A DNA stretch of 64,000 bases from Marchantia polymorpha subsp. ruderalis (lineage: Eukaryota > Streptophyta > Marchantiopsida > Marchantiales > Marchantiaceae): NCBI GenBank assembly GCA_037833965.1, contig AP031353.1, forward strand, positions 10,418,501 through 10,482,500, in the 5' to 3' direction. Under the pieces are notes generated by a model, which had not been told where the DNA came from, did no database searches, and worked only from the letters and a program-made list of their open reading frames with translations. Below, in pieces: positions 3,001 through 30,938 of this stretch. The position numbers were made by a program, and so were the translations under genes. Each line of letters opens with the position of its first letter. Position 1 is the stretch's first letter.

Positions 3001-3768
3001 ACATTTTGGCGACGAGCAGCGAGGCTGCAGCCGTGCCTTCGCAGGCAGCACACGTCGACGACGTGCAGCCCCACTCGGGGCAGTCGCCGACGCAATCAAT
3101 GGCGACTGAAATTCTCCACTCGGATGATGACGACGGAGGCTCCACGGAAGAAATGTCAGGAGCAGAAGACACCGAGGAGGAGGAGGAGGAAATTGTTGGA
3201 GCGCCGGCGGCGGCGCTCTCTGAGCAGGTGATTCCGTTGCTGCGGTACTTGGATCGCAAGGTCGATAAATACGCCGACCCACTCCAGCCGGGATCTTACA
3301 TCGAGTTAGTGCGCAGGCGGACTCGCACTAAAGTCCACACCAGCAAGCTATTAGCTAGAGTGGACCAGGAGTTGAAGGACTTGAAGGAGAAGCATGCGTG
3401 CTTGTGGGGTCAGTACAAGCTTAATCAGAAATTCTACAAGCACTCCGAGAAGATGAAGGATGAGAAACTGGGCGAGCTCACCAAGGAGCAGGTGAAGGTC
3501 AAGGAAGCACTCAACTCTTAGCAGGCCCAGAATCGGATTTTGTCAGAGGAGCTCGTGCGACAGATGCGGTTGTTGGAACAATGTCAGCTCGCACGGCAGG
3601 CGGATGAAGAGTTAATCCGCAGGTTACAGTCAGAGTGTGGCGACTTGAGAGCGCAACGTGCTGAAGCCGAATCGCAATTAGTGATAATTGAAGAAGATCG
3701 CAGGAAGGAGGCGGATCGCGCGAAGGTGGAGACGGCGAGGCGAGTCGCCCACTGTCTCAAGGGCTACG
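1..3768 (+). mobile_element. Giant LTR copy A, truncated at both ends
   Basis: This is a partial copy of the 5.3 kb LTR family. It enters the window about 300 bases into the LTR, judged against the complete copy at 9277-14617. It ends at 3768 inside the coding part, where the next LTR starts with TGTGGTACC. Bases 1-941 are the non-coding 5' part and carry many palindromes of the type CGCCTGTGCACAGGCG (for example 204-219 and 265-280). The many overlapping open frames there follow from high GC content and palindromes and are not separate genes. Confidence 0.8.
942..3768 (+). pseudogene. LTR-encoded ORF, copy A (one premature stop, 3' truncated)
   Basis: The frame opens at ATG 942 and stays open for 859 codons to a TAG at 3519-3521. 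Other copies have GAG there, so this is a point nonsense change. The same frame continues to 3768, where another LTR interrupts it. Visible architecture: a conserved, Trp- and Arg-rich N-terminal domain of about 300 residues (motifs FLLWGWNYIC, GHLLFDSESIKVTKQEEAQF, HWASILHRVMRQ); a Pro/Arg/Ala-rich low-complexity middle with PVHR repeats; an acidic Asp/Glu run near residues 730-755; then a Lys/Glu-rich coiled-coil segment. I do not recognise the family. There is no reverse transcriptase, protease, integrase or zinc knuckle in it. It lies in LTR U3 sequence, so it would be an element-encoded accessory protein (inference). Confidence 0.75.
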
Positions 3769-6378
3769 TGTGGTACCCCACTTTTGGCAATTTTGAGGAA
3801 ATTAAAACATTTTTGGAAAACTGTACCCTGGCAGCATTGTAAATAGCCTTCGGTACATCAAAACAGAGTGAATCCGGAAGATCGCGGGGATTCTTGAGGG
3901 ATCTTGTAGAATCTGGGATTTGGGGTGCCGCAGTAAGGACAGGCACCACCCTCCCTGCGAGCTCTGCAGTTAGGATTTCTACGGCGCAAGGCGCAAAACC
4001 CGCCTTCGGAGGTTGCGTCCGCGGCTGTAGGGAAACCCTCCCTAATTAGGTCAAACCTCGGGCGCCTTGACCAAGTTAGGATCCCGTTGGAAAGAGCTCG
4101 ACGCACTGATTCCAACGAGCCCAAGAACGCTTGGAACGGATGAGGACTTAGGGAGTTATCGCTATTGGAAGAAACGGAGGCGGTCGCCTACGGCGGAAAG
4201 ATTTCGCCACCGGCGCGAATTCCGCCTACGCGGAAGGGGGAATCAAGTTTTGTCCTATGCGCGGACGAAGGCGTTCGCCTGTGCACAGGCGAAGTAGGGT
4301 TAGGGAAGGCGCGAAGTCCGCCTACGCACAGGCGCTCGCCTGTGCACAGGCACTTCGGCGTCGGCGGAAAATCCGCCTTGGGCCCTAGAAATGCGCCTTG
4401 TGAGGTAGAAAGTGTACGGCGCCTTCCGCGCCAGCGCAGCGCCGCGTACGTCGGAAGAGCCGCCAGAGTAATCCAATCGGTACGGACTATGCGGACGGCA
4501 CGGGTGGATGCGCTCTTGGACGGACGGAGTTGCGGCGGCGGAAGCGCCGACGGAGAGACAAGGAACGGACAGACTGGACGGAGACGGCTGACCACGGTCA
4601 ACGCCTTCCGCGCCAGCGCAGCGCCGCGGACGGAATTCGCCTGCGCACAGGCGAACGCCTGTGCACAGGAGGATGTTCAAGTTCCGCACCGGCGGAGAAT
4701 CCGCCGAGGCTCCTGCCTGCGCATAGGCAGGAGTTGAATTTTTGTCCGACATGCGGACACACGCGTCAAGGCAGAGGGGGATTGGCCGAGGGGCGGTACG
4801 AACAAGTGTACCGCGCAAGGCGGAAAACTCGCCTTCGGCGCTACGCCCCCATGTCCGCAGGGTAATACGCTCGCGGAGTTCAAATCCGCCAATTCGAGCG
4901 TGAGAGTTTAATCGACGACGGCGGAGCGTGAAGCCGCGCGTGAGAGCGAAGACCGTTCCAGCGTACAGCCGGCGCGGCCATCAAGTGAGACGTTCTTCAC
5001 GACCAAGAGCCGACCATGACCTTCGACCGGGCGGCGGAGAACGTCCCATTCTTGAATTCGCGATTCCAATCTCTTGTGCGCGCTGCGCGCATCCATCTGC
5101 TGGCTGCGGAACATTCTCGACGTCGTCGCACAGGGGATTTCTTGTTGATTGAGGGAGAAGTGAGTGCGCGTGATTTGGAATTGAGGGCGATTAGAGTTTG
5201 CCGAGAGAGAAAGAAACCCGGGCGGTGCGGAAGTAGAATGAGCGGGCGAGCGAACCCCAGGAACGCAATGACGAGACCGAGCAGATTGCGGATGGTGCCA
5301 CTTCGCCTACCGCAGAACGGGCTGCGCGCTTTTGAGGAGCGCTTAATAGCAAGAAAGCTCGATTTCTTGCTATGGGGATGGAATTACATCTGTGCGAATA
5401 TGGTGCGCGAGTGGCTAGAGCCACAGGGACCACCCTCGCGCGGATTGCGTCCGCATGTTGACCGGTGGACAGTCCAAGATTGGGCGCAGGCGTTGGGAAG
5501 ATGTGCTGGCATGCCAGGGCATCTCCTTTTCGACAGTGAGAGCATCAAGGTGACCAAGCAAGAAGAGGCGCAATTTGTGGAGCTGTTCAAGACCGGGAGG
5601 TCTACCAAGAATGGGTACAGGACCCGTGATTACAAGGATCGATTTCGCCGGACTTTGTCCGCGGCGCTTATGCAATTACTGCAGCCGCACCGCGCCTGCT
5701 ACATCACATTGTGGCAGGTCTCTTTTGTGGAGTGCGTCATCGAGGGAACTCCAATTCACTGGGCGAGCATCCTGCACAGGGTGATGCGACAACACGCGTT
5801 TGAGAAGAAGGGGGGAACTCTAAACCATCTTTCTCCTTTCCTCATCAATTTTTATCGACAGCGGAATTGTTTGACAGCGGCGGAGCTTGAACATTTTCCG
5901 CCATTGTCCATCGACCATCCCGGGAAGTATGTGCGGGAGAACGAGGTCGATACTGATGCAGAGGAGTCACCGACTTCTACCCCATCAAGACGGAGGGACG
6001 AAGGGAGACACACCCCTGCAGCGCGAGTGCCGCGGAAGCGGCGATGGAGGGAAGAGTCTGAAGAGGAGCAGCATCAAGAACCCTCTGCTCCCATTCGACC
6101 GCGGCCGCTGTGCGAGCCATACAGCCGGCCGAAGCAGAAGGCACGCAGACTGGTGTTACCAGCTGACAGTGCAGACACAGCGACAATTGCGACGGAGATA
6201 GGAAGTGCGTCGCCAGAGAGGCATGAGGAAGCGCGGACGACCGCAGGAGCGACGGGCCACGCTGCAACCTCGACGGGAGAGAGGCCGCCTACGGGCCAAG
6301 GGCCTCCGGAGTTACCACGTGCGATGCGGACAGATGTTCCGTTTGCGCACAGACAAACCTCCGCGGACGGACGAGCCT
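3769..6378 (+). mobile_element. Giant LTR copy B, 5' half
   Basis: It starts with the intact LTR terminus TGTGGTACCCCAC and runs to 6378, where a further LTR terminus begins. Its 5' end lies directly against the late coding part of copy A (flank CTACG). The 5' non-coding part and palindromes match copy A closely. About half of the LTR, including the promoter, is missing. Confidence 0.8.
5016..6378 (+). pseudogene. LTR-encoded ORF, copy B (N-terminal half only)
   Basis: The frame opens at ATG 5016 with the same N-terminal domain as copy A, differing by few residues. It stays open through the basic/Pro-rich middle until 6378. There the next LTR starts, and the frame then reads a short meaningless tail from LTR sequence to a stop at 6450-6452. 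The coiled-coil half is absent. There are no stops within the retained part, so its coding capacity was lost by the junction rather than by point decay. Confidence 0.75.
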
Positions 6379-8514: not shown

Positions 8515-8712
8515 TACGCTGCACTGTGCGACCTCCGAGTGCGCTCCGAGTGGACACTTGCAGTATTTCTGGGAGTGACAGTCGCCTGAGAATTCAAACT
8601 CCTCAATAGTCTGTTAAAACGTGACACTTTGTACCCTGTGTGTTCCTCTGTCCCTGTGGGTTCGACCTTTCTACCACTATATTGCAGTTTTAGCCTTTAG
8701 TGGGTTATTACA

Positions 8713-9276
8713 CTCCCATTCGACCGCGGCCGTTGTACGAGTCCTACAGCCGGCCGAAGGAGAAGGCGCGCAGGCTGGTGTTACCAGCCAACAGCGCGGA
8801 CACGGCGACGATTGCGACGGAGAAAGGAAGTGCGTCGCTAGAGAGGAACGAGGGAGCGCGGACGTGCGCAGGAGCAACGGACCACGCTGCAGCCTCGACG
8901 GACGGGAGGCCGCCTACGGGCCAAGGGCCTCCGGAGTTACCAGGTGCGTTGCGGACAGGTGTTCCGCCTGCGCACAGGCGAGCCTCCGCGGACGGACGAG
9001 ACTCCGCGGACGGACGACCACAAGCGGACGTGGACCTGCGTCTACGCGTGGGAAGAAGCAGTTCGCCTGTGCACAGGTCACCTCCACACGTGCCGCCTGT
9101 GCACAGGCAGGAATCACCCCCGTTCCAACGTAGGAAGGGGAAGGAGCCGGCGGAAGATCCGCCTACGAGACACCGGCCTTCGGGGCCAGACCCTCCGGCG
9201 CACAACGCGCCGCGATTTGCGCCTTCGGCGCCAGGGCCTTCGGGCCGAGGAAATGCGAGCAGAGAGCGTGCGGAGG
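8713..9276 (+). mobile_element. LTR fragment E (middle of the LTR ORF)
   Basis: This is a 564-base piece from the middle of the LTR ORF. It is open in frame and encodes the Pro/Arg-rich segment with PVHR repeats. It belongs to a variant different from copy B, since many substitutions separate them. It begins right after the LTR end at 8712 and stops at the LTR start at 9277. The continuation of this piece appears to be 14618-17064, with 33 bases missing relative to intact copies. Confidence 0.7.
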
Positions 9277-10479
9277 TGTGGTACCCCACTTTTGGTAATT
9301 TTGAGGAAATTAAAACATTTTTGGAAAACTGTACCCTGGCAGCAATGTAAATAGCCTTCGGTGCATCAAAACAGAGTGAATTTGGAAGATCGCGGAGATT
9401 CTCGAGGGATCTCGTAGAATCTAGGAGTTGGGTGCAGCAGTAAGGACGGGCACCACCCTCCCTGCGAGCTCTGCAGTTAGGATCCCTACGGCGCAAGGCG
9501 CAAAACCCGCCTTCGGAGCTGCGTCCGCGGCGGTAGGGAAATCCTTCATATTTAGGTCAACCCCCGGACGCCTTGACCTAGCTAGGGTCTCGTTGGAAAG
9601 AGCTCGACGCACTGATTCCAACGAGCCCAAGAACGCCAACAGCGGATAAGGACTCCGGGAGTTATGAAGGTTGTAAGATACTCAGCTCTTCGCCTGCGCA
9701 TAGGCGGAGAAGTTTTGTCCTATGCGCGGACGAAGGAAGTTCGCTTGTGCACATGCGAAATAGGGTTTGAGGTAGGCGTGAAGTTCGCCTATGCACAGGC
9801 ATCCGCCTGTGCACAGGCGCTTCGGCGTCGGTGGGAAATCCGCCTTGGGCCCTAGAAATGCGCCTTGTGAGGTAGAAATTGTACGGCGCCTTCTGCGCCA
9901 GCGCAGCGCCGCGGGCGAGCAAGGAGCCGCCAGAATAGTCAAATCCGTACGGACCGTACGGACGGGACGGATGGATGCGCTCTTGGACGGACGGAGTTGC
10001 GGCGGCAGAAGCGCCGACGAAGAGACAAGGAACGGACAGTCTGGACGGAGACGGCTGACCGCGGTCAACGCCTTCTGCGCCAGCGCGTCGCCGCGGACGG
10101 AATTCGCCTGCGCACAGGCGAGCGCCTGTGCACAGGAGGATGAAGTTCCGCGCCGGCGGAGAATCCGCCGAGGAGTCTGCCTGCGCACAGGCGGGAGTTG
10201 AACTTTTGTCCGACATGCGGACACACACGTCGAGGCAGAAGGGGATTGGCTGAGGAGCGATACGAACGAGTGTACCGCGCAAGGCGGAAAACTTGCCTTC
10301 GGCGCTGCGCACCCATGTCCGCGGTGTAGTACGCTCGCGGAGTTCAAATCCGCCAATTCGAGCGTGAGAGTTTAATCGGCGATGGCGGAGCGTGAAGCCG
10401 CGCGTGAGAGCGGAGACCGTCTCAGCGTAGAGCCGGCGCGGCCATCAATTGAGACGTCCTCCACGAGCAAGAGCCGACC

Positions 10480-13400
10480 ATGACCTTCGACCGGGCGGCG
10501 GAGAGCGTCCCATTCTTGAATTCGCGATTCCATTCTCTTGTGCGAGCTGCGCGCGTCCATCTGCTCGCTGCTAAGCATTCTGGACATCGCCGCATAGAGG
10601 ATTTCTTGGTGATTGAGGGAGAAGTGAGTGCGCGTGATTTGGAATTGAGGGCGATTAGAGTTTGCCGAGGAAGAAAGGAGCTCGAGCGGTGCGGAAGTAG
10701 AATGAGCAGGCGAGCGAACTCCAAGAACGCAATGACGAGACCGGGCCGATTGCGGATGCTGCCGCTTCGTCTACCACAGAACGGACTGCGCGCTTTCGAG
10801 GAGCGCTTGATAGCAAGAAAGCTCGATTTCTTGCTATGGGGATGGAACTACATCTGTGCGGATATGGAGCGCGAGTGGCTAGAGCCACAGGGACCACCCT
10901 CGTGCGGATTGTGTCCGCATGTTGATCGGTGGACAGTCCAAGATTGGGCGCAGGCGTTGGGAAGATGTGCCGGCATGCCAGGGCATCTCCTCTTCGACAG
11001 TGAGAGCATCAAGGTGACCAAGCAGGAAGAGGCGCAATTTGTGGAGCTGTTCAAGACCGGGAGGCCTACCAAGAATAGGTACAGGACCCGCGATTACAAG
11101 GATCGATTCCGCCGGACTTTGTCCGCGGCGCTGATGCAATTACTTCAGCCACACCGCGCCTGCTACGTCACATTGTGGCAGGTCTCTTTTGTGGAGTGTG
11201 TCATCGAGGGAACTCGAATTCACTGGGCGAGCATCCTGCACAGGGTGATGCGACAGCACGCTTTTGAGGAGAAGGGGGGAACTCTAAACCATCTCTCTCC
11301 TTTCCTCATCAATTTTTATCGACAGCGGAATTGTTTGACAGCGGCGGAGCTTGCGCGTTTTCCGCCGTTGTCCGTCGACCATCCCGGGAAGTATGTGCGG
11401 GAGAATGAGGTCGACACTGATGCAGAGGAGTCACCGACTTCTACTCCGTCAAGGCGGAGGGACGAAGGGAGGAACACTCCTGCAGCACGAGCGCCGCGGA
11501 AGCGGCGATGGAGAGAGGAGTCCGAAGAGGAGCAGCATCAAGAACCCTCTGCTCCCATTCGACCGCGGCCGTTGTACGAGTCATACAGCCGGCCGAAGCA
11601 GAAGGCACGCAGACTGGTGTTACCAGCCAACAGTGCGGACACGGCGACGATTGCGACGGAGAAAGGAAGTGCGTCGCCAGAGAAGAATGAGGAAGCGCGG
11701 ACATCCGCAGGAGCAACGGACCACGCTGCAGCCTCGACGGGCGAGAGGCCGCCTACGGGCCAAGGGCCTCCGGAGTTACCACGTGCGTTGCGGACAGGTG
11801 TTCTATTTGCGCACAGGCGAGACTCCGCGGACGGACGAGACTCCGCGGACAGACGATCACAAGCGGACGTAGACCTACGCCTACGCGTGGGAAGAAGCAG
11901 TCCGCCTGTGCACAGGTCGCCTGTGCAGAGGTCACCTCCACACGTGCCGCCTGTGCACAGGCAGGAATCACCCCCGTTCCAACGTAGGAAGGGGAAGGAG
12001 CCGGCGGAAGAGCCGCCTACGAGACACCGGCCTTCGGGGCCAGACCCTCCGGCGCACAACGCGCCGCGATTTGCGCCTTCCGCGCCAGGGCCTTCGAGCC
12101 GAGGAGATACGAGCAGGGAGCGTGCGGAGGCCGCACCATCCGCGGGTAATCCGCCGGTAGATGCGCCTTCGGCGGTAGGGCCTCAGGGCCAAGGGACATC
12201 GGGCGAGCGGCCCCCGGCCATGTCGCCTTTGGCGATGGACGTCCGCGGCGCTACGCCTGCGGCGAACAAGGCGCTGGCATTTGCGCCTGCGCACAGGCCA
12301 AGCACAGCCCCCGCGGACCGATCAAGGGAGCAGCAATAGGCGGAGGAGCGGAGTGACTGTCCGCGGGATGAAATTTCGGTGCGCGATGCGCAATCAAACC
12401 CCGCGCAGCCACCCTCCGCTTGATCGCCTTCGGCGGCGGACGTCGGCGGCAGAGAGGATACGGTAGACGATCAACAAGTGGGCGGCGGGGATGCAGCACG
12501 GGCACATTCGCCTACCGCCTTAGACATTTTGGCGAAGAGCAGCGAGGCTGCAGCCGTGCCTTCGCAGGCAGCACACGTCGACGACGTGCAGCCCCACTCG
12601 GGGCAGTCGCCGACGCAATCAATGGCGACTGAAATTCTCCACTCGGATGATGACGACGGAGGCTCCACCGAAGAAATGTCAGGAGCAGGGGACACTGAGT
12701 AGGAGGAGGAGGAAATTGTTGGAGCGCCGGCGGCGGCGCTCTCTGAGCAGGTGATTCCGTTGCTGAGGTACTTGGATCGCAAAGTCGATAAATACGCCGA
12801 CCCACTTCAGCCGGGATCTTACATCGAGTTAGTGCGCAGGCGGACTCGCACTAAAGTCCACACCAGCAAGCTACTAGCTAGAGTGGACCAGGAGTTGAGG
12901 GAATTGAAGGAGAAGCATGAATGCTTGTGGGGTCAGTATAAACTAAATCAGAAATTCTACAAGTACTCCGAGAAGGTGAGGGATGGGAAACTGGAAGAGC
13001 TCACCAAGGAGCAGGTGAAGGTCACAGAAGCACTAATTTCTGAGCAGGCCCAGAATCGGATTTTGTCGGAGGAGCTCGTGCGACAGACGCGGTTGTTAGA
13101 ACAGTGTCAGCTCGCACGACATGCGGATGAGGATGTAATCCGTAGGCTACAGTCAGAGTGTGGCGAATTGAGAGCGCAACGTGCTGAGGCCGAATCGCAA
13201 TTAGCGGTAATTGAAGAGGATCGTAGGAAGGAGGCAGATCGCACAAAGGTGGAGACGGCGAGGCGTGTCGCCCACTGTCTCAAGGGCTACGCCCATTGGG
13301 AAGTGGCGGCGCAGGAGAAACTCACACTGCGTGAGTTTGAACTTCGCGCGGCCGGGTTGTTGTCAGGCGACAGCAGGAGTCGGCGAAAGGTAGCAAAGAA

Positions 13401-13602
13401 GCTCGACGCTTTTGTGTCGAAGGCGCGGGATACCATGTCCGCCCTCGAAGTGGAGGTGTCCGCGGCGTTGCAGCGATTGGGACTGCGCAGTCGAGCGGAA
13501 GACTGGCAGGGTAGGGAGTTAGTGCGCGGCAGTCTGTCGCGCAGGAGACGTAGCACAGGTTCCGCGGAGTGTAGTGTAGCGTGGTTCCGTGCAGGCGTGT
13601 AG
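10480..13602 (+). pseudogene. LTR-encoded ORF, copy F (full length, three stops)
   Basis: The frame is 1,041 codons long without any frameshift, but has in-frame stops at 12337-12339, 12421-12423 and 12700-12702. The N-terminal domain (first about 300 residues) and the C-terminal coiled coil are otherwise preserved. The last stop falls within the acidic Glu run. Preservation of length and frame over more than 3 kb shows the ancestral ORF was protein-coding. Copies A, F and the minus copy at 20014-23124 share the same start and the same architecture. Function is not recognised. Confidence 0.8.
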
Positions 13603-13638
13603 CGTAGTGCAGTGTAGTGCTAGTTAGGACTTAGAAGG

Positions 13639-13647
13639 TATAAAATA
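13639..13647 (+). promoter_or_regulatory. LTR TATA box (copy F)
   Basis: TATAAAATA is at the same offset as in the other copies, 37 bases after the ORF stop codon. It is followed by the CCAGGC...GCCT inverted repeat, which here carries one mismatch. Confidence 0.65.
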
Positions 13648-14617
13648 GTTCCAGGCGTTTTGCCTAGGGTTCTTTCCCAAACTTAGAAGTGCAGATCAGG
13701 AGTCCATTTCCTCTGCGTGTTTGTGTCCTTAAGTTCTGTCACCACACATGAGGAGTTACAACTTAGCGTTCCGCATTTTGTAGCTGAAGGCCTTCGGCCG
13801 AATATTCAGAGCTAGCACATTGGTTAGAGACTTGAGTAGTTCGGATCTGCACCTGCGGGTGACTGCCGATGCTCAGAGCCAGTGACTAGTTAGATACTTG
13901 AACAGTTTCGCTCCTAAACCTTCGAGTGTTTCTTTCTGATTGTACTCCTTTGGGATTTTTCCCCTGAATGCCAAAGTGAAGTTTTGTTACTTCGTGCAAG
14001 CCTTGGTTGCAAATTCAGGTTACGCTGCAGCAGGTGCCTTCAGGGTAACCCCTGTAGTATTTCTGGGAATGACAAGTGCCTGAGAATTCAAACTCTTCAA
14101 TAGACTGTTGTTGTGTTACTGGAATGTTTCTCAGTGAGTCCTTCAGTGCGGACCTGTGTTCTCTGCGCGTTTTGTGAGTTGAGAGTGTTGTTCACCGCGT
14201 CTGAGTGACTTCGATCCGAAGTAGGTAGTCCAAACCGGGTTTCCTACACTAGCAGCAAGCTAGTGGAAGTGTTGTAAAAGCCGGAGTTGGAAGTCACTAC
14301 CCGCAGCTTCACTGAGTGTACTCTTGAGAGACTTTCCCCCTGAAATCTTGAAGTAGAGGTCCTAACGGATCTCTAGGTTGTGTTTCTGTAGTTTCAGGTG
14401 TGTGTGTGTGTGTGTGTGTTACGCTGCACTGTGCGACCTCCGAGTGCGCTCCGAGTGGACACTTGCAGTATTTCTGGGAGTGACAGTCGCCTGAGAATTC
14501 AAACTCCTCAATAGTCTGTTAAAACGTGACACTTTGTACCCTGTGTGTTCCTCTGTCCCTGTGGGTTCGACCTTTCTACCACTATATTGCAGTTTTAGCC
14601 TTTAGTGGGTTATTACA

Positions 14618-16053
14618 CGCCTTCGGCGGTAGGGCCTCAGGGCCAAGGGACATCGGGCGAGCGGCCCTCGGCCATGTCGCCTTTGGCGATGGACGTCCGC
14701 GGCGTTGCGCCTGCGGCGGACAAGGCGCCGGCATTTGCGCCTGCGCACAGGCCAGGCACAGCCCCCGCGGACCGATCGAGGGAGCAGCAACGGACGGAGG
14801 AGCGGAGTGACTGTCCGCGGGATGAAATTTTGGTGCGCGATGCGCAATCAAACCCCGCGCAGCCACCCTCCGCTCGATCGCCTTATGCGGCGGACGTTGG
14901 CGGCAGAGAGGATACGGTTGAAGACCGACAAGCGGGCGACGAGGATGTAGCACGGGCACATTCGCCCACCGCCTTAAACATTTTGGCAAAGAGCAGCGAG
15001 GGTGCAGCGGTGCCTTCGCAGGCAGCACACGTCGACGACGTGCAGCCCCACTCGGGTCAGTCGCCGACGCAATCAATGGCGACTGAGATTCTCCATTCGG
15101 ATGATGACGACGGAGGCTCCACCGAAGAAATGTCGGGAGCGGGGGATACCGAGGAGGAGGAGGAGGAAATTGTTGGAGCGCCGGCGGCGGCGCTCTCTGA
15201 GCAGGTGATTCCGTTGCTGAGGTACTTGGATCGCAAAATCGATAAATACGCCGATCCACTCCACCCGGGATCTTACATCGAATTAGTGCGCAGGCGGACT
15301 CGCACTAAAGTCCACACCAGCAAGCTACTAGCTAGGGTGGACCAGGAGTTGAGGGAATTGAAGGAGAGGCATGCCTGTTTATGGGGGCAGTACAACCTTG
15401 AGAGGAAAGCGCACGCCCTCGACAGGATGCGGAAGGATAGAGTGGAAGAGCTCAGCAGGGATGTGCTGCGGACCACGCAGGATTTGATGTCTGAGAAAAC
15501 TCAGAATCAGATTCTGTCAGAAGAGCTCGTGCGACAGATGCGGTTGTTGGCGGAGTGTCAGCTCGCACGGCAGGCAGATGAGGATTTAATCCGCAGGCTA
15601 CAGTCAGAGTGTGGCGAATTGAGAGCGCAGCGTGCTGAGGCCGAATCGCAATTAGTGGTAATTGAAGAGGATCGCAGGCGAGAGGCAGATCGCACGAAGG
15701 AGGAGACGGCGAGGCGTGTCGCCCACTGTCTCAAGGGCTACGCCCACTGGGAAGTGGCGGCGCAGGAGAAACTCACACTACGTGAGTTTGAACTTTGCGC
15801 AGCCGGGTTGTTGACAGGCGACAGCATGAGTCGGCGGAAGGTAGCAAAGAAGCTCGACGCTTTTCTGTCGAAGGCGCGGGATACCATGTCCACCCTCGAA
15901 GTGGAGGTGTCCGCGGCGTTGCAGCGGTTGGGACTGCGCAGTCAAGCGGAAGACTGGCAGGGTAGGGAGTTAGTGCGCGGCAGTCCGTCGCGCAGGAGAC
16001 GTAGCACAGGTTCCGCGGAGTGTAGTGTAGCGTGGTTCTGTGCAGGCGTGTAG
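14618..16053 (+). pseudogene. LTR-encoded ORF, copy G (C-terminal half, open)
   Basis: The C-terminal 478 or so codons are free of stops, from the Pro-rich middle through the acidic run (near 15150) and the coiled coil to TAG 16051-16053. An upstream ATG at 14605 lies in LTR-end sequence and is an accident of the junction. The coiled coil is Arg/Glu/Leu-rich (for example SEELVRQMRLLAECQLARQA). It differs from copy A/F in one segment (ERKAHALDRMRKDRVEELSR against NQKFY...KLEELTKEQ), so at least two ORF subtypes exist. Confidence 0.7.
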
Positions 16054-17059: not shown

Positions 17060-18916
17060 TTACAAAGACTTTCGTGCAGGTCGCAAGTCGGACTTGCTGA
17101 ATGCCTTCTCTTTCCCTTTTCCCGTCCGGTCGTCGGTTCTCCGTTTGTGCTTGCGAGTGTCGCGCTCTGGTTCCTTCGCTTTCTTGGAACTACGAGTTTC
17201 GACTCGTGCGCACATAACTTCTTCCGCCGGCCATTCTTCGTCTTCATCATTTCTGTCCGAACCTACTTCGACCTGGTTAACTTGGACGTCCTCCTTGGCA
17301 GGGGTGGTCACAAATCGTACCGTTGGCCGAGGAACTGGTGGCTGATCACACTCTGGCGCAGTATGCCCGGACTTCTTGCAGTTACTACATGTCGGGACAT
17401 AATCGTTTCGCCTTTTGGGATGGGGACACTGAGGTGAGAAGTGTCCAACTTCCCCACAATTATAACAAGCCCGCGGTGGCGGTGGGTCAAACGTCCCTGG
17501 AGGTGCCCTTCGCCTCACGGGTACCGTAGTGGCCCGATCTACCGGATGATAATGTTGAAGCTGCATTGCTGAAACTGCAGTAGGGGCGGGGACCGACTGG
17601 AGGGCGTAGGCTGTCTCTTCGCTCGCCTCTCCATAGTACTGGGGGTGTTCTCCATAGTACGGTTGTGCCCACTCCACTGCGTTGACTGGATATGACGGAC
17701 GGGTGGTAAGACACTCGGTGTTCGCATGTCCCACCGCTCCGCACGTAGTGCACCACAAGTTCGCTCGCACTCTCCCGGGTGATTTTCGGCGATCATGGCC
17801 GCCTACCACTTGAACTTTGAGGTCGGCGAAGTCCTTCACAAGGGTCTCCATCTTCGAAGCTATGTCTCCCGGCGCTCTGTCCATAGTCATTCGTCGGAGG
17901 CCCTTCTTCTTCGCTGCCCCATGCTTCTTTCTCTTCTTCTCTTCCTCCGACGAGGAGGTTTCCTCTTCTTCGGATGAGGAACGGTTCTCGTCCGAGGACG
18001 GTTCTTCCGATGACGGAGTTGCACCTCTGCGTCGTCTTCGCCCCCCCTTCGGTTTTCGCTCCTTTGACTCCCGTCTCTCTCTCCCTCTTCGGTTGAGAGT
18101 GGAAGTTTCGAAGGCTTCGGCCGATGCAATCACATCCTCAATAGTATCGCACTTACTGTGTCGGCAAAAAGTCTCCATCTCCCGAGTTAAGCCGGTCACA
18201 TACCAATCCACAGCTTGCTGTACCGAGAAAGGGGACCCTGGTCCTGTTTTCGGTATTCTGTCAAGGAGGTCCAGAAATCTCTCAGTGTAGTCACGCAGAC
18301 TCTCCTTCTTCTCTCGCTGCAGGTTACGCAACTTTGTCAATACCCGACTGTCGTAGCCGAGCTCGCGGAAGCGTCGAAGGAACTTCTCCTTCAGCTGAGC
18401 CCATGTTGTCAACCCAGTCGGATCGATGCTCTCCTGATTGTACCAACTTCTTGCCTTCTTCCGTAGAAGACTTGGAAAGATCCGTAGTCGGTCCTCGTCG
18501 GTGATCTCGCGATTAGCAATGGACACCGATTCGAACAACTTGATGTAGGAATCTGCATCGTCATCATCCCCACTCCCTTTATACTTTGGATAGGAATGCT
18601 TAGTAATCGGCTGAGGTAGCCGTGCATTGGCTTGTCCGTCTGCCATCGGGGTGTCTGTTGACGTTTCTCGGGCGGTCGGTTCTAATTCACAAGGGGGGTC
18701 CGTGCAAGGAATATCTAGTAGAACTGTAAGCACCAGGTTTGGTTCCGAGTCACTGGGGGTAGTTTCCCCAAGGATGTCGGCCGAACTAGGCTTAGGTACT
18801 CTTTTTGGTATTTTCTTGTTTTGACGCCGTGTCTCTTCCACGGCCTTCTCTGAATCTCGTCGGACCCTGCGGGCAGCTCTCGCACTTAGGTTGCTCCCAC
18901 TAGCTCCATTCGACAT
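17060..18916 (-). CDS. gag: Ty3/gypsy-type Gag polyprotein (3' truncated)
   Basis: 618 codons, open, starting at ATG 18916. A retrotransposon gag capsid region lies at about residues 105-275, with the hallmark KARSWYNQ followed by TTWAQLKEKFLRRF. Next is a basic and Ser/Glu-rich linker. Three CCHC zinc knuckles follow: CTTCGAVGHANTEC (about residue 388), CYNCGEVGHFSPQC (about 481) and CSNCKKSGHTAPEC (about 509). In the family Gag forms virus-like particles and packages the element RNA. The frame does not reach protease or pol: its last codons run into the end of an oppositely oriented LTR, and the stop TAA comes from LTR sequence. It is thus a gag cut off at a rearrangement junction. No stop or frameshift occurs inside, which suggests a young insertion. 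Confidence 0.85.
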   Translation of the reverse strand: MSNGASGSNLSARAARRVRRDSEKAVEETRRQNKKIPKRVPKPSSADILGETTPSDSEPNLVLTVLLDIPCTDPPCELEPTARETSTDTPMADGQANARLPQPITKHSYPKYKGSGDDDDADSYIKLFESVSIANREITDEDRLRIFPSLLRKKARSWYNQESIDPTGLTTWAQLKEKFLRRFRELGYDSRVLTKLRNLQREKKESLRDYTERFLDLLDRIPKTGPGSPFSVQQAVDWYVTGLTREMETFCRHSKCDTIEDVIASAEAFETSTLNRRGRERRESKERKPKGGRRRRRGATPSSEEPSSDENRSSSEEEETSSSEEEKKRKKHGAAKKKGLRRMTMDRAPGDIASKMETLVKDFADLKVQVVGGHDRRKSPGRVRANLWCTTCGAVGHANTECLTTRPSYPVNAVEWAQPYYGEHPQYYGEASEETAYALQSVPAPTAVSAMQLQHYHPVDRATTVPVRRRAPPGTFDPPPPRACYNCGEVGHFSPQCPHPKRRNDYVPTCSNCKKSGHTAPECDQPPVPRPTVRFVTTPAKEDVQVNQVEVGSDRNDEDEEWPAEEVMCARVETRSSKKAKEPERDTRKHKRRTDDRTGKGKEKAFSKSDLRPARKSL

Positions 18917-18963
18917 TCACCGAGCATGGCTGCTCGTAAAAACCCCGGTGTTGACGCAACTGT

Positions 18964-18981
18964 TCCCCGGCAGCGGCGCCA
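18964..18981 (-). promoter_or_regulatory. Retrotransposon primer-binding site (tRNA-Asp-like)
   Basis: On the minus strand TGGCGCCGCTGCCGGGGA lies 22 bases after the end of the LTR at 19004 and upstream of the gag ATG. From memory, plant tRNA-Asp ends CCGGCAACGGCGCCA, whose complement matches the first 15 bases with one difference. The same type of site is known from plant Ty3/gypsy elements. It establishes that 19004-24337 is a genuine 5' LTR. Confidence 0.75.
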
Positions 18982-19968
18982 AAAAGAAGTTGTCGGCTTC
19001 TTATGTAATAACCCACTAAAGGCTAGAACTGCAATATAGTGGTAGAAAGGTCGAACCCACAGGGACAGAGTAACACACAGGGTATAAAGTGTCACGTTTA
19101 ACAGACTATTGAGGAGTTTGAATTCTCAGGCGACTGTCACTCCCAGAAATACTGCAAGTGTCCACTCGGAGCGCACTCAGAGGTCGCACAGTGCAGCGTA
19201 ACACACACACACACACACACCTAAAACTACAGAAACACAACCCAGAGATCCGTTAGGACCTCTACTCAAGATTTCAGGGGGAAAGTCTCTCGCGAGCACA
19301 CTCAGCGAAGCTGCGGGTAGTGACTTCCAACTCCGGCTTTTACAACACTTCCACTAGCTTGCTGCTAGTGTAGGAAACCCGGTTTGGACTGCCTACTTCG
19401 GATCGAAGTCACTCATACGCGGTGAACAACACTCTCAACTCACAAAACGCGCAGAGAACACAGGTCCGCACTGAAGGACTCACTGAGAAACATTTCAGTA
19501 ACACAACAACAGTCTATTGAAGAGTTTGAATTCTCAGGCACTTGTCATTCCCAGAAATACTACAGGGGTTACCCTGACGGCACCTGCTGCAGCGTAACCT
19601 GAATTTACAACCAAGGCTTACACGAAGTAGCAAAACTTCACTTTGGCATTCAGGGGAAAAATCCCGAAGGAGTACAATCAGAAACAAACACTCGAAGGTG
19701 TAGGGGCGAAACTATTCAAGTATCTAACCAGTCACTGGCTCTGAGCATCGGCAGTCACCCGCAGGTGCAGATCCGAACTACTCAAGTCTCTAACCAATGT
19801 ACTAGCTCTGAACATTCGGCCGAAGGCCTTCAGCTACAAAATGCGGAACGCCAAGTTGTAGCTCCTCGTGCGTGGTGACAGAACTAAGGGCACGAACACG
19901 TAGAGAAAATGAGTTCCTGATCCGTACTTCTGAAATTGGGAAAGAACCCCAGGCAAAACGCCTGGAAC

Positions 19969-19977
19969 TATTTTATA
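19969..19977 (-). promoter_or_regulatory. LTR TATA box (copy H)
   Basis: TATAAAATA on the minus strand, with the CCAGGC-GTTTT-GCCTGG inverted repeat just downstream. It would drive the gag transcript. Confidence 0.65.
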
Positions 19978-20013
19978 CCTTCTAAGTCCTAACTAACACT
20001 ACACTGCATTACA

Positions 20014-23000
20014 CTATGCGCCTGCACGGAACCACGCTACACTACACTCCGCGGAACCAGTGCTACGTCTCCTGCGCGACGGATTGCCGCGCACTAACTC
20101 CCTACCCTGCCAGTCTTCCGCTCGACTGCGCAGTCCCAACCGCTGCAACGCCGCGGACACCTCCACCTCGAGGGTGGACATGGTATCCCGCGCCTTCGAC
20201 AGAAAAGCGTCGAGCTTCTTCGCTACCTTCCGCCGAATCCTGCTGTCGCCTGCCACCAACCCTGCTGCGCGAAGTTCAAACTCACGCAGCGTGAGTTTCT
20301 CCTGCGCCGCCACTTCCCAGTGGGCGTAGCCCTTGAGACAGTGGGCGACACGCCTCGCCGTCTCCTCCTTTGTGCGATCTGCCTCTCGCCTGCGATCCTC
20401 TTCAATTACCACTAACTGCGATTCGGCCTCCGCACGCTGCGCTCTCAATTCGCCACACTCTGATTGTAGCCTGCGGATTAAATCCTCATCCGCCTGCCGT
20501 GCGAGCTGACACTCCGCCAACAAACGCGTCCGTCGCACGAGCTCTTCTGACAGAATCTGATTCTGAGTTTTCTCAGACATCAAATCCTGCGTAGTCCGCA
20601 CCACATCTCTGGTGAGCTCTTCCACTCTATCCTTCCGCATCCTGTCGAGGGCGTGCGATTTCCTCTCAAAGTTGTATTGCCCCCATAAACAGGCATGCCT
20701 CTTCTTCAATTCCTTCAACTCCTGGTCCACCCTAGCTAGTAGCTTGCTAGTGTGGACTTTAGTGCGAGTCCGCCTGCGCACTAATTCGATGTAAGATCCT
20801 GGCTGAAGTGGATCGGCGTATTTATCGAATTTGCGATCCAAGTACTTCAGCAACGGAATCACCTGCTCAGAGAGCGCCGCCGCCGGCGCTCCAAGAATTT
20901 CCTCCTCCTCCTCCTCGGTATCCCCTGCTCCCGACATTGCTTCGGTGGAGCCTCCGTCGTCATCATCCGAGTGGAGGATTTCAGTCGCCATTGATTGCGT
21001 TGGCGACTGTCCCGAGTGGGGCTGCACGTCGTCGACGTGCGCTGCCTGCGAAGGCACCGCTGCAGCCTCGCTGCTCTTCGCCAAAATGTCTAAGGCGGTA
21101 GGCGAATGTGGCCGTGCTACATCCCCGTTGCCCGCTTGTCGGTCTTGAATCGTGTCCTTTCTGCCGCCGACGTCCGCCGCCGAAGGCGATAGAGCGGAGG
21201 GTGTCTGCGAGGGGTTTGATTGCGCATCGCGCACCAAAATTTCGTCCCGCGGACAGTCAATCCGCTCCTCCGTAAGTTGCTGCTCCCTCGATCGGTCCTG
21301 CGCGGGGGCTGTGCCTGGCCTGTGCGCAGGCGCAAATGCCGGCGCCTTGTCCGCCGCAGGCGCAGCGCCGCGGACGTCTATCGCCAAAGGCGACATAGCC
21401 GGGGGCCGCTCGCCCGATGTCCCTTGGCCCTGAGGCCCTACCGCCGAAGGCGCTTCTACCGGCGGATTACCCGTCGATGGTGCGGCCTCCGCACGCTCCC
21501 TGCTCGCATCTCCTCGGCCCGAAGGCCCTGGCGCCGAAGGCGCGTTGTGCGCCGGAGGGTTTGGCCCCGAAGGCCTGTGTCTCGTAGGCGGATCTTCCGC
21601 CGGCTCCTTCCCCTTCCTACGTTGGAACGGGGGTGATTCCTGCCTGTGCACAGGCGGCACGTGTGGAGGTGACCTGTGCACAGGCGACCTGTGCATAGGC
21701 GGACTGCTTCTTCCCACGCGTAGGCGTAGGTCCACGTCCGCTTGTGGTCGTCTGTCCGTCAAGGCTCGCCCGTCCGTCGAGGCTCGCCTGTGTGCAGGCG
21801 GAACACCTGTCCGCAACGCACGTGGTAACTCCGGAGGCCCTTGGCCCGTAGGCGGCCTTTCGTCCGTCGAGGGTGCAGCGGGGCCCGTTGCTCCTGCGGA
21901 CGTCCGCGCTCCCTCGTTCTTCTCCGGCGACGCACTTCCTTTCTCCGTCGCAATCGTCGCCGTGTCCGCGCTGCTGGCTTGTAACACAAGCCTGCGCGCC
22001 TTCTGCTTCGGCCGGCTGTACGATTCGTACAACGGCCGCGGTCGAATGGGAGCAGTGGGTTCTTGATGCTGCTCCTCTTCGGACTCCTCTCTCCATCGCC
22101 GCTTCCGCGGCACTCTTGCTGCAGGAGTATTTCTCCCCTCGTCCCTCCGCCTTGACGGAGTAGAAGTCGGCGACTCCTTTGCATCAGTGTCGACCTCATT
22201 CTCCCGCACATACCTCCCGGGATGGTCGACGGACAACGGTGGAAAACGAGCAAGCTCCGCCGTGGTCAAACAATTTCGCTGTCGATAAAAATTGATGAGG
22301 AAAGGAGAGAGATGATTTAGAGTTCCCCCCTTCTCCTCAAAAGCGTGCTATCGCATCACCCTGTGCAGGATGCTCGCCCAGTGAATTGGGGTTCCCTCGA
22401 TGATGCACTCCACAAAAGAGACCTGCCACAATGTGATGTAGCAAGCGCGGTGTGGCTGCAGTAATTGCAGCAGCGCCGTAGCCAAAGTTCGGCGGAATCG
22501 ATCCTTGTAATCGCAGGTCTTGTACCCATTCTTGGTAGACTTCCCCTTCTTGAACAGCTCCACAAATTGCGCCTCTTCCTGCTTGGTCACCTTGACGCTC
22601 TCACTATCGAAGAGGAGGTGCCCTGGCATGCCGGCACATCTCCCTAATGCCTGCGCCCAATCTTGGACCGTCCACCGATCGACATGCGGACGCAATCCGC
22701 GAGAAGGTGGTCCCTGTGGCTCTAGCCACTTGCGCACCATATCCACACAGATGTAGTTCCATCCCCATAGCAAGAAATCGAGCTTTCTTGCTATCAAGCG
22801 CTCCTCGAAAGCGCGCAGCCCGTTCTGTGGTAGTCGGAGTGGCAGCATCCGCAATCGGCCCAGTCTCGTCATTGCGTTCTTGGAGTTCGCCCGCTCGCTA
22901 ATTCTCCTTCCGCTCCGCTCGAGCTCCTTTCTTCCTCGGCAAACTCTAATCGCCCTCAATTCCATATCACGCGCACTCACTTCTCCCTCAATCACCAAGA

Positions 23001-23124
23001 AATCCTCTGCGCGGCGATGTCGAGAATGCTTAGCAGCCAGCAGATGGACGCGCGCAGCTCGCACTAGAGAATGGAATCGCGAATTCAAGAATGGGACGCT
23101 CTCCGCCTCCCGGTCAAAGGTCAT
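20014..23124 (-). pseudogene. LTR-encoded ORF, copy H (near intact, one nonsense codon)
   Basis: This is the least damaged copy: 1,036 sense-length codons from ATG 23124 to the normal stop at 20014, interrupted only by TAG at 22348-22350 where other copies have CAG. The N-terminal domain covers about residues 1-290, the Pro/Arg-rich PVHR region about 400-560, the acidic run about 745-760, and the coiled coil about 770-1000. The C-terminus is basic (RRRRSTGSAECSV). There is no signal peptide or membrane segment. Lying in U3 of the 5' LTR, it would be present again in the 3' LTR of a complete element, near the 3' end of the genomic RNA. Function unknown; coiled-coil and basic ends would suit RNA binding or a structural role, but that is a guess. 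Confidence 0.8.
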
Positions 23125-24337
23125 GGTCGGCTCTTGCTCGTGAAGGACGATTCAATTGATGGCCGCGCCGGCTCTACGCTAAAACGGTCTCCGCTCTCAC
23201 GCGCGGCTTCACGCTCCGCCGTCGCCGATTAAACTCTCACGCTCGAATTGGCGAATTTGAACTCCGCGAGCGTACTACGCCGCTGACATGGGTGCGCAGC
23301 GCCGAAGGCGGATTTTCCGCCTTGCGCGGTACACTCGTACGTACCGCTCCTCAGCCAATCCTCCTCTGCCTCGGCGCGTGTGTCCGCATGTCGGACAAAA
23401 GTTCAACTCCCGCCTGCGCGCAGGCGGACTCCTCGGCGGATTCACCGCCGGCGCGGAACTTCACCCGCCTGTGCACAGGCGCTCACCTATGCGTAGGCGA
23501 AGTCCGTCCGCGTCGATGCGCTGGCGCGGAAGGCGTTGACCGCGGTCAACCGACTCCGTCCAGACTGTCCGTTCCTTGCCTCTCCGTCGGTGCTCTCGCC
23601 GCCGCAACTCCGTCCGTCCAAGAGCGCATCCATCCGTCCCGTCCGTACAGTCCGTACGGTCCGTACGGATTTTACTATTCTAGCGGCTCCTTGCTCGTCT
23701 GCGGCGTTGCGCTGGCGCAGAAGGCGCCGTACAATTTCTACCTCACAAGGCGCATTTCTAGGGCCCAAGGCGGATTTTCCGCCGACGTCGAAGCGCCTGT
23801 GCACAGGCGCACGCCTGTGCGTAGGCGAACTTTGCGCCTACATCAAAAACCTATTTCGCCTGTGCGCAGGCGAACTTCCTTCGTCCGCGCATAGGACAAA
23901 ACTTCTCCGCTTGTGCACTGGCGAAGAGCTGAGTATCTTACAACCTTCATAACTCCCGGAGTCCTCATCCGTACTTGGCGTTCTTGGGCTCGTTGGAATC
24001 AGCGCGTCGAGCTCTTTTCAACGAGATCCTAACTAAGTCAAGACGTTTGGAGGTTGACCTAAATATGAAGGATTTCCCTACCGCCGCGGACACAGCGCCG
24101 AAGGCGGATTTTGCGCCTTGCGCCGTAGGGATCATACCTTCAGAGGTCGCAGGGAGGGTGGTGCCCTTCCTCAACGCTGCACCCAACTCCTAGATTCTAC
24201 GAGGTCCCTCAAGAATCTCTGCGATCTTCCGAATTCACTCCGTTTTGATGCACCGAAGGCTATTTACATTGCTGCCTTGGTACAGTTTTCCCAAAATGTT
24301 TTAATTTCCTCAAAATTACCAAAAGTGGGGTACCACA

Positions 24338-25152
24338 ACGCCTTCGGCGCTGCGCCTTCGGCGGATAACGCGCCGGGATTTGCGCCTACGCGTAGGCCGG
24401 ACGCATCCCTCGCGCAGGACTGATCGAGGGAGCAGGACCTAACGGAGGAGCGGATTGTCTGTCCGCAGGATGAAATTCGCGTGCGCGATGCACAATTACA
24501 CCCCGCGCAGACACATTCCGCGCGATCGCCTTCGGCGGTAGACGCCGGCGGCGAAGGAGTTACGATCGACGCACGACAGGCGGACGATGGGGATGTGGCA
24601 CGGCCGCATTCACCCACCGCCTTGGACATTTTAGCAGGGAGCAGCGAGGCTGTAGGAGCGCCATCGGCGGCAGAACACGCAGACCACTCGCAGCCCCACT
24701 CAGGCCAGTCGCCAACGCAATCAATAGCGACCAAAATCCTCCCTTCGGATGATGATGAAGAAGGAGGATCCACGGAATCAGTGTCGGAATCGGGATCCAC
24801 CGAGGAGGAGGAGGAAGAAATAGTTGGTGCGCCGGCGGCGGCGCTCTGTGAGCACGTAGTACCTCTGCTGAGGTACTTGGATCGCAAGATGGATAAGTAC
24901 GCGGATACTCGCCAGCCTGGGTCCTACGTCGAGTTAGTGCGCAGGCAAACTTGCACTAAAGTCCACACCAGCAAGCTGCTAGCTCGGGTGGACCGGAAAC
25001 TTAAGGAACTGCAAGAGAAGCATGAATGCTTGTGGGGTCAGTACGATCTCAATCGGAAAATGTACACCCACTACGACAAGGTGAAGGATGGGAGACTGGC
25101 AGAACTCACCAAGGAGCTGGTGAAGGCCACGGAAGCACTGATTTCTATAATC
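24338..25152 (+). pseudogene. LTR-encoded ORF fragment, subfamily I
   Basis: This is a middle-to-C-terminal piece of the LTR ORF (Pro/Ala-rich end, acidic Glu run, first part of the coiled coil), matching 43642-44456. An in-frame TGA at 24421-24423 is specific to this copy. It breaks off after the codons for EALIS, where AT-rich sequence begins. A 9-bp-stem hairpin, GCACTGATT-TCTAT-AATCAGTGC (25135-25157), lies exactly at the break. Confidence 0.7.
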
Positions 25153-30290: not shown

Positions 30291-30938
30291 ATGGGTCGTT
30301 TACTACACTCTTCATTCGCTCTGCTAGTTTTCATTGCAGTTGCTCTGACCCTGCAGTCCGTGCAGGCCTCTGATCCAGAACTCACGAAGGATTTCCAGGT
30401 CCCAGCAGGAATCAATGCAGCCGATATCGATGGAACGTTCTTCACCAGCGAGGCCTTGAGGAACGTCATGCCCAACGTGGCTTCACCTTTTGCAACTGTC
30501 ACCACAGCTAATCTGGTTGCACCAGCAAAGGCTCCATTTCTCGCAGTCGATGGACTCGGTGTTTCCATGGCTTTGCTTCAGTTTCCTCCTGGCACCGTGA
30601 ACCCGCCCCACACTCACCCTCGTGGAACGGAACTTTTGTTCATTATCGAAGGCACTCTGGACGTGGGTTTGGTCGATACCACGAACAAACTTTTCACCAA
30701 CACTCTCTACAAGGGCGACATCTTCGCTTTTCCCAAAGGCCTCGTTCATTTCCAGATCAACAACGACAAGTACAAGACCGTGACGGCACTTGGCGGATTC
30801 AGCAGCTCCAACGCAGGGCTGGTCCGTCTGCCGAATACTCTGTTCAATACATCCACGCCAATCTCTGATAAGGTGCTCCAGATTTCTTTTGGCATATCTG
30901 GTGATGTAGTCAAGGCATTGAGAGCTCAATTCGCTTGA
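30291..30938 (+). CDS. Germin-like protein (cupin), gene 2
   Basis: 215 residues, intronless, starting at ATG 30291 and nearly identical to gene 1 (for example Met60 for Thr60, Ala81 for Thr81). Signal peptide, both germin boxes with the His/His/Glu/His metal set, and the Asn186 sequon are intact. Cysteine is lacking as in its siblings. It points away from gene 1, with about 1.97 kb between the start codons. The matching promoter suggests similar expression. The inverted-repeat arrangement implies gene conversion can keep the pair alike (inference). Confidence 0.93.
   Translation: MGRLLHSSFALLVFIAVALTLQSVQASDPELTKDFQVPAGINAADIDGTFFTSEALRNVMPNVASPFATVTTANLVAPAKAPFLAVDGLGVSMALLQFPPGTVNPPHTHPRGTELLFIIEGTLDVGLVDTTNKLFTNTLYKGDIFAFPKGLVHFQINNDKYKTVTALGGFSSSNAGLVRLPNTLFNTSTPISDKVLQISFGISGDVVKALRAQFA

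What the first reader, a model, noticed from the sequence alone, without database searches (positions are those of the whole stretch)
19004..24337. A 5.3 kb LTR that encodes a ~1,040-residue protein in its U3 region
Seen: a TG...CA-bounded repeat with TATA box, followed by a primer-binding site and gag, contains a 3.1 kb ORF upstream of its own TATA box. Eight partial or complete LTR-ORF copies in the window keep the same frame and architecture with few lesions, so the ORF was maintained through several rounds of amplification. Plant LTRs this long are usually non-coding. The closest known principle is an accessory ORF in U3, as in some animal retroviruses; I know of no described plant Ty3/gypsy case like this. 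The protein (conserved Trp/Arg-rich domain, Pro-rich linker, acidic patch, coiled coil) is not gag, pol or a known envelope.
Basis: partly seen in the sequence, partly recalled or inferred. Interest (0 to 1): 0.9.

Follow-up and report, generated by a model that had tools for sequence, protein, structure and literature searches.

The report
Retrotransposon gene carried inside its LTR
A liverwort jumping gene carries an extra protein gene of about 1,000 codons inside its own end repeats, where plant elements are normally expected to hold only control signals, and mutation patterns show that the protein has been kept working.

Summary
Window 19004-24337 (minus strand) is a 5,334-bp LTR followed by a primer-binding site and gag. 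Its U3 holds an ORF of ~1,035 codons (one in-frame stop in this copy) that ends 36 bp before a conserved TATA box. Whole elements in the same genome settle the layout. In one, both LTRs are 5,086 bp and 99.96% identical, flanked by the same 5-bp repeat, and each carries an unbroken 950-codon ORF; the internal region is 5.8 kb. Other copies show gag-protease and RT-RNaseH-integrase there. A diverged family (about 41-53% protein identity) also keeps the ORF inside solo LTRs with target duplications. dN/dS is 0.22-0.45 in frame, 1.09 and 1.46 in shifted frames. Named homologues listed are M. polymorpha hypothetical proteins. Placement resembles MMTV sag; the protein matched no family searched. 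Expression and function are untested; my guess is a nuclear accessory regulator. My paper searches listed no plant precedent. New variant of a known kind; interest 0.78.

The parts
19004..24337 (-). complete 5,334-bp LTR (TG...CA) of a Ty3/gypsy element
   Evidence: same boundaries in other genomic copies, some with 5-bp target duplications
20014..23124 (-). U3 ORF (~1,035 codons) with one in-frame stop in this copy; open parts 22348-23124 and 20014-22269
22870..22872 (-). Met85, possible alternative start (equals Met1 of the diverged family)
19969..19977 (-). TATA box (TATAAAATA), 36 bp downstream of the ORF stop
   Evidence: TATAAA in 30 of 33 aligned LTR 3' ends
18962..18981 (-). primer-binding-site-like sequence TGGCGCCGCTGCCGGGGAAC, 22 nt past the LTR end
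17060..18916 (-). gag ORF (618 aa here), cut off at ~17064 by another LTR copy
942..3776 (+). LTR-ORF copy (859 aa open as 942-3521)
5016..6377 (+). LTR-ORF copy, cut by an LTR starting at 6379
9277..14617 (+). second full-length LTR; ORF copy 10480-13599 with 3 in-frame stops
8712..9275 (+). LTR-ORF fragment
14620..16050 (+). LTR-ORF fragment (C-terminal half, open)
24346..25146 (+). older LTR-ORF fragment (68% aa identity)
40645..44447 (+). older-family LTR start (40645) with ORF copy at 41923-44447 (68% aa identity)

Best explanation
An autonomous-type, non-chromodomain Ty3/gypsy LTR retrotransposon of a Marchantia liverwort carries a third gene, in the same direction as gag and pol, wholly inside U3. 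Shown: LTRs of ~5.1-5.4 kb with the ORF, the ORF stop 36 bp before TATA, a short internal region (gag-pro, RT-RH-INT), such LTRs flanked by 5-bp duplications, the same layout in diverged families, and purifying selection on the ORF. Follows from the replication cycle: genomic RNA starting after TATA in the 5' LTR carries the ORF once, downstream of pol, in the 3' LTR; reverse transcription copies it into both LTRs, so each insertion yields two gene copies and each solo LTR keeps one. Inferred: the protein is made from a separate (spliced, or TATA-less promoter) mRNA, enters the nucleus (basic patches) and works as a multimeric accessory regulator of the element's transcription, silencing state or integration. 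Also inferred: it arose from a gene between pol and the 3' LTR (the usual plant extra-ORF position) when the polypurine tract used for plus-strand priming moved upstream of it. The confidence given is for the selected U3 gene; for the nuclear-regulator function it is about 0.4.
For: Layout. LTR pairs: 2 mismatches in 5,086 bp with GCTAT on both outer flanks and an unbroken 950-codon ORF in both LTRs; 98.3% over 3,052 bp, 99.2% over 1,025 bp and 96.4% over 1,611 bp for three others. Solo ORF-bearing LTRs with duplications AACAC, CCTTT, GGGAC and, in a diverged family, AGTGC. Selection: 0.22 for 346 pairs with dS >= 0.3 versus 1.09 and 1.46 in the shifted frames; pooled bins 0.23-0.45 for the ORF, 0.18-0.37 for gag-pro (one single-pair bin of 0.67 aside), 0.07-0.21 for pol. 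Unbroken ORFs of 1,045, 1,046 and 1,029 aa, and of 851 aa in the diverged family. TATA conserved. An M. polymorpha protein (P0003) matches a locus here at 98% over residues 81-710; there an LTR-like start, the ORF and TATA follow in the same order.
Against: No RNA or protein data. No conserved TATA upstream of the ORF (TATAWA in the first 1,300 bp of 4 of 34 LTR 5' ends) and nine upstream ATGs in the one LTR checked, so the route of expression is unknown. ORF dN/dS is higher than that of gag-pro and pol in most comparable dS bins; residues 1-82 (0.62) and 401-560 (0.53) are only weakly constrained. The youngest pair lacks 96 codons of the putative coil relative to the 1,046-aa reading. Structure models were too poor to use (mean pLDDT 42 and 45). 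Of the 346 distant pairs 191 have dS of 1.5 or more (saturated), pairs are not independent, and many copies are broken.
Confidence: 0.85

Rival explanations
1. Env-like gene: the ORF is a plant 'envelope' protein in env position that slid into the LTR.
For: Sense direction, downstream of pol in the genomic RNA; some plant elements carry env-like ORFs there (PMC7264820 part 1).
Against: Highest 19-residue hydropathy is 1.14-1.22 in the three proteins checked, no signal-like N-terminus, strongly basic/acidic/Pro-rich make-up; no Pfam env hit.
Confidence: 0.04
2. Captured host gene: the ORF is a transduced liverwort gene hitch-hiking in the LTR, without use to the element.
For: The named homologues listed are all from Marchantia.
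Against: Kept in diverged amplified families (41-53% identity) and under selection. The loci that I read around ORF copies show LTR ends or LTR-like starts, but these are a few dozen of a much larger number and no search for a host gene outside LTRs was made.
Confidence: 0.06
3. Open by composition only: a GC-rich LTR happens to be open, with no coding role.
For: The LTR checked is 58% G+C, and other frames of the region also hold ORFs of 200-315 aa.
Against: dN/dS 0.22-0.45 in frame against 1.09-1.46 out of frame; 50 stops and 20 frame breaks in 37,841 codons of 46 copies; a 288-bp deletion that keeps the frame.
Confidence: 0.03
4. MMTV-Sag-like function in detail (host-interaction factor acting on neighbouring cells) rather than an intracellular regulator.
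For: Same genomic position: MMTV's LTR is long because the 3' LTR encodes Sag, made from spliced mRNA (passages of PMC3026287).
Against: Sequence likeness to Sag not tested; no membrane segment; plants lack the adaptive immune system that Sag exploits (established knowledge).
Confidence: 0.03

Closest known systems
Mouse mammary tumour virus sag gene (also lentiviral nef, recalled)
   Same: Accessory gene lying in the LTR, which it makes unusually long (PMC3026287 passages); so duplicated at integration and present once, at the 3' end, in the RNA.
   Different: Different host kingdom and element class; the ~3-kb ORF here is more than twice the whole 1.3-kb MMTV LTR; no protein comparison was made; expression by splicing not shown here.
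Plant extra ORFs (aORF/eORF) of Athila, Ogre, Retand, Grande, SIRE
   Same: Large family-specific third ORF; sense ORFs lie after pol; some proteins are nuclear or SMC-like (PMC7264820 parts 1-2).
   Different: Those are described in the internal region, with PMD, Transposase_28 or Athila ORF-1 domains in some (PMC6317226 passages); here the ORF is inside the LTR and matches none of them in Pfam.
Retrosat2/RIRE3/RIRE8 of rice
   Same: Long LTRs (~3 kb) and an extra ORF0 without known function.
   Different: ORF0 is upstream of gag-pol and was used as a query separate from the LTR (PMC3485330 passages); Retrosat2 is listed as a Tekay/Del chromovirus (PMC6317226 passage).
VANC proteins of Arabidopsis VANDAL transposons
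   Same: Possible analogy only: an element-encoded anti-silencing protein bound to specific motifs, in non-coding regions of its element (abstract and section headings of PMC5735166).
   Different: DNA transposon (recalled); no sequence relation tested; no methylation data here.

Membership tests
Ty3/gypsy LTR retrotransposon | TG..CA LTRs, PBS, PPT, 5-bp target duplication | tested here: met
Ty3/gypsy LTR retrotransposon | gag with CCHC, protease, then RT-RNaseH-integrase in that order | tested here: met
   two open frames of 950 and 881 aa in L024; the protease match (23.8 bits) is just under its 24.3-bit cut-off
Chromovirus | chromodomain after integrase | tested here: not met
   no Pfam chromodomain listed at E <= 5 in the one 880-aa pol scanned
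Tat clade of OTA | additional archaeal-type RNase H | tested here: not met
   only one RNase H region found in the gag-pro and pol scanned; definition from PMC6317226 passages
Athila / OTA | RT phylogeny | not tested
   no reference RT set available; the likeness of the PBS to tRNA-Asp is recalled, not tested
Plant extra ORF after pol (eORF-3'F) | position in the internal region between pol and 3' LTR | tested here: not met
   PPT precedes the LTR that holds the ORF; ORF present in both LTRs
Env-like protein | transmembrane segment(s) | tested here: not met
   hydropathy of three proteins; no TM predictor was run
PMD / Transposase_28 / Transposase_32 proteins | Pfam match | tested here: not met
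   Searches (E up to 5-10, but HMMER's filters drop most weak matches; PF20167 in the genome) was uninformative because its controls also gave nothing; (PF10536) did not complete
MMTV-type U3 accessory gene | complete ORF in U3, upstream of the LTR's own TATA | tested here: met
MMTV-type U3 accessory gene | expressed from spliced or internal-promoter mRNA | not testable with these tools
   no RNA data

The most novel reading that the evidence does not exclude
The gene's place in U3 makes every intact LTR, solo LTRs included, a portable copy of a trans-acting regulator that recognises the element's own U3 (where short palindromes are about twice the shuffle mean, although single shuffles of the non-coding part reach the same count). 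The retrotransposon family would then maintain itself through a dispersed swarm of self-targeting, possibly anti-silencing, genes: a U3-encoded regulator system that my searches found described for no plant, and which arose by a shift of the polypurine tract.
Probability: 0.25. Interest if true: 0.92.

Novelty: new variant of a known kind. Interest (0 to 1): 0.78.

Why it matters
Plant LTRs are generally treated as non-coding, and LTR-based dating leans on that. A selected gene inside U3 means that LTR divergence need not be neutral in these families, that solo LTRs can hold genes, and that dozens of hypothetical proteins in a model plant (50 of the 59 hits are named so) probably belong to one retrotransposon gene family. 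It also shows that the U3 accessory-gene layout, best known from animal retroviruses, occurs in a plant Ty3/gypsy lineage, and it gives a concrete system in Marchantia to ask what extra retrotransposon genes do.

Tried and rejected
First hypothesis rejected: from L009 and L021 the elements looked gag-only (LTR, 3.1 kb, LTR). The sequence at the junctions showed no polypurine tract and, in L021/L022, an AACAC duplication: LTRs nested in RT, not 3' LTRs. My first guess of an 8.5-kb internal region, from spacings, was likewise wrong; it is ~5.8 kb.

Two structure predictions (11 and 47 sequences; the second used 46 of the 61 proteins found) gave mean pLDDT 42 and 45; no fold search was run on them. 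PDB profile search gave only chance matches, best E 0.35. PHROGs: best E 0.28. PF20167 in the genome: nothing, but the controls also gave nothing. Self-priming at the PBS: no complementary stretch of 9 or more in the two LTRs tested; the leader did not fold better than shuffles (z -0.9). Looking downstream of the other window pol gene for an internal homologue of the ORF gave nothing useful.

Paper searches: ten (74 was about VANC only), in open-licence PMC papers, with listings that were mostly cut short (for example 15 of 69 papers). Judged by titles and abstract starts, no listed paper describes an ORF inside a plant LTR. I read parts 1-2 of 3 of PMC7264820 (part 3, which continues the reference list, was not opened), passages of PMC9985172, PMC3485330, PMC6317226, PMC8775202, PMC3026287 and PMC5408684, and the abstract and outline of PMC5735166; the rest were seen as listings only.
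Full report
What is in the window. On the minus strand, 24337 to 19004 is one 5,334-bp LTR bounded by TGTGGTACCCCA and TGGGTTATTACA. In LTR coordinates the ORF runs from 1214 to 4324; the window copy has one in-frame stop, and its two open parts are 22348-23124 and 20014-22269. TATAAAATA lies 36 bp beyond the stop codon. After the LTR end come a 22-nt spacer, TGGCGCCGCTGCCGGGGAAC and gag. Eight ORF copies of more than 150 codons are found in the window, with 0-3 in-frame stops each; two full-length LTRs are present, at 9277-14617 and 19004-24337.

Whole elements elsewhere. Each DNA search of the same genome (241 Mb, 9 contigs) scored only its best 40 candidates out of 1,946 to 4,261 at first look, so copy number is high but not measured. 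I fetched 10 candidate places as 20 loci. gag-pro and pol are internal: in L024 they are two open frames of 950 and 881 aa with Retrotrans_gag, two CCHC stretches, an aspartyl protease match just under its cut-off, RVT_1, RNase H, integrase zinc-binding and rve. A purine tract (CACAATTGAGGAG) occurs in 7 of 32 loci; in L010, L014, L022, L024, L026 and L031 it directly precedes an LTR start, and in L027 it sits in a rearranged junction. The clearest pair is C6:28734484-28739569 and 28745369-28750454: 5,086 bp each, 2 mismatches, no gaps, GCTAT on both outer flanks, PBS and PPT in place, 5,799 bp between, and an unbroken 950-codon ORF in each LTR. I did not fetch its internal region beyond the two ends. 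Of five other pairs compared, three gave 98.3% over 3,052 bp, 99.2% over 1,025 bp and 96.4% over 1,611 bp; the other two gave only 94 bp and nothing, because the pieces cut out did not overlap.

Solo LTRs. ORF-bearing LTRs without an internal region are flanked by 5-bp duplications: AACAC (L021/L022, unbroken ORF), CCTTT (L014, 2 stops), GGGAC (L011, 2 stops) and, for a diverged family whose LTR starts TGTGGTAACACAC, AGTGC (L025/L026, 1 stop). Copies of that family are 44-53% identical to the main protein in aligned codons, and its unbroken 851-aa reading in L010 is 41-44% identical over residues 85-1046. So the ORF lies between the true LTR ends even where no internal sequence could confuse the boundaries.

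Selection. Reference-anchored codons from 45 copies (at least 400 codons; L001 was dropped as a duplicate of the window copy) gave 930 pairs with at least 300 shared codons; about 50 of these had undefined dS and fell out. For the 346 pairs with dS of 0.3 or more, mean dN/mean dS is 0.22; the same pairs read one or two bases off give 1.09 and 1.46. Of the 346, 191 have dS of 1.5 or more, so 0.22 is rough; in bins of dS below 0.8 the median is 0.29-0.45. By region (136, 269, 207, 63, 195, 157, 61 and 117 pairs): 1-82, 0.62; 83-300, 0.22; 301-400, 0.21; 401-560, 0.53; 561-750, 0.37; 751-860, 0.24; 861-1020, 0.14; 1021-1046, 0.12. The last part lies next to the promoter, so DNA-level constraint may add to it. 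As a yardstick, gag-pro (11 copies) gives 0.18-0.37, apart from one single-pair bin of 0.67; pol (8 copies) gives 0.07-0.21; the U3 ORF (46 copies of at least 350 codons) gives 0.23-0.45. The ORF is thus constrained, but less than gag-pro or pol. In-frame stops and frame breaks: 50 and 20 in 37,841 codons for the ORF, 15 and 6 in 8,916 for gag-pro, 11 and 2 in 5,041 for pol. Pairs are not independent.

The protein. Composition: a basic N-terminus, a Trp-containing domain at about 85-300, a Pro/Ala-rich linker at about 300-700, an acidic stretch within 701-800, a Leu/charged region at about 800-1000, and a basic C-terminus; basic patches at 35, 340 (RKRRW) and 1027 (RRRR); no membrane-like stretch. 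No Pfam family over its cut-off; sub-cut-off hits were to coil or Pro-rich families (Extensin_1, CENP-K, FtsL_2, BicD and the like). The youngest pair lacks 96 codons of the Leu/charged region, in frame (lengths 950 and 1,046; place by eye). The database searches listed 10 and then 59 homologues, each after scoring only the ~8,000 candidates sharing most words and within length limits; 50 of the 59 are named M. polymorpha subsp. ruderalis hypothetical proteins (one, P0058, is also named 'Integrase c...' in UniRef) and 9 are unnamed. P0003 matches C2:26895422-26897311 at 98%, so the host is M. polymorpha or very close (inference); at that locus an LTR-like start, the ORF and TATA follow in the same order, the LTR end being cut by another LTR, and an older copy at C9:6815500-6820500 (L029) shows the same order.

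Promoter. TATAAA is present just after the ORF in 30 of 33 aligned LTR 3' ends (L001 and the window copy are the same, and two L023 rows share one; L009 has a variant; L016+1718 and L025+4038 lack it). Upstream of the ORF no TATA is conserved (4 of 34). The ORF is therefore in U3, and in the genomic RNA it would be the third gene, after pol. How it is translated is open: splicing, as for MMTV Sag (passages of PMC3026287), or a TATA-less promoter.

How it works, and what is inferred. Placement in U3 follows from where plus-strand priming occurs: the PPT lies just before the ORF-bearing repeat, so everything after it becomes LTR. The simplest origin, untested, is an ordinary extra ORF after pol that was taken into the LTR when the priming tract moved upstream. 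The function is inferred from make-up only: I favour a nuclear, multimeric accessory regulator acting on the element's own transcription, silencing or integration (perhaps 0.4), over an envelope or a passenger gene.

Place among known things. Extra ORFs are common in plant elements, but the review and the survey that I looked at describe them in the internal region or upstream and downstream of the polyprotein (PMC7264820 parts 1-2; PMC6317226 passages; the word Marchantia does not occur in the latter's main text). The survey does note non-chromoviruses with LTRs up to about 5 kb. No paper listed in my ten searches describes, by title and abstract start, an ORF inside a plant LTR; the library holds open-licence papers only and the listings were cut. 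Positionally the nearest known case is MMTV sag.

I recounted the numbers against the calls; changes were the identity range of the diverged family, the saturation and dropped pairs, the shuffle maxima, the MMTV size comparison, and the limits of the searches.

Noticed in passing
L027:3084-10000 and L028:1-9647 (C3:19699583-19716146): An element with inverted LTRs (99.7% identical over 5,369 bp), the same outer flank ATCCG on both sides, and a junction of LTR end + leader up to the PBS + CACA + reversed PPT. It looks like an autointegration-type product, and the leader at the junction suggests that the cDNA end extends to the PBS.
   Followed up: partly
window 18962-19003 and 13 other leaders: The PBS-like site lies 22 nt (23 in L024) past the LTR end in 12 of 13 fetched leaders, one being rearranged. 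Closer spacing is usual (recalled; the survey PMC6317226 looked for TGG 0-5 bp past the LTR when no perfect match was found). How the extra bases are removed before integration is unexplained.
   Followed up: partly
window 19004-24337, U3 and ORF: Short palindromes (such as GCCTGTGCACAGGC, three times) are about twice the mean of 40 shuffles: non-coding U3 12 vs 6.2 (largest shuffle 12), ORF 29 vs 13.9 (largest 25), R/U5 5 vs 3.5; in the C6 LTR 11 vs 5.8 (largest 17), 27 vs 13.3 (largest 22), 4 vs 4.0.
   Followed up: partly
window 3769, 6379, 9277, 24338; L021:8896; L009:8987: Several of these LTRs start inside other copies of the same LTR or element; two lie within about 10 bp of each other's site at the start of RT. 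Not counted genome-wide.
   Followed up: no
window 27674-28321, 30291-30938, 46968-47615, 49615-50262: Four 215-aa ORFs in 96-98% inverted repeats; the one tested is a cupin (Cupin_1, 6e-31).
   Followed up: no
window 37725-40805 (-): A second Ty3/gypsy pol (RT, RNase H, integrase), about 37-62% identical in aligned pieces to the pol of this family, interrupted near 40645 by an older ORF-bearing LTR.
   Followed up: partly
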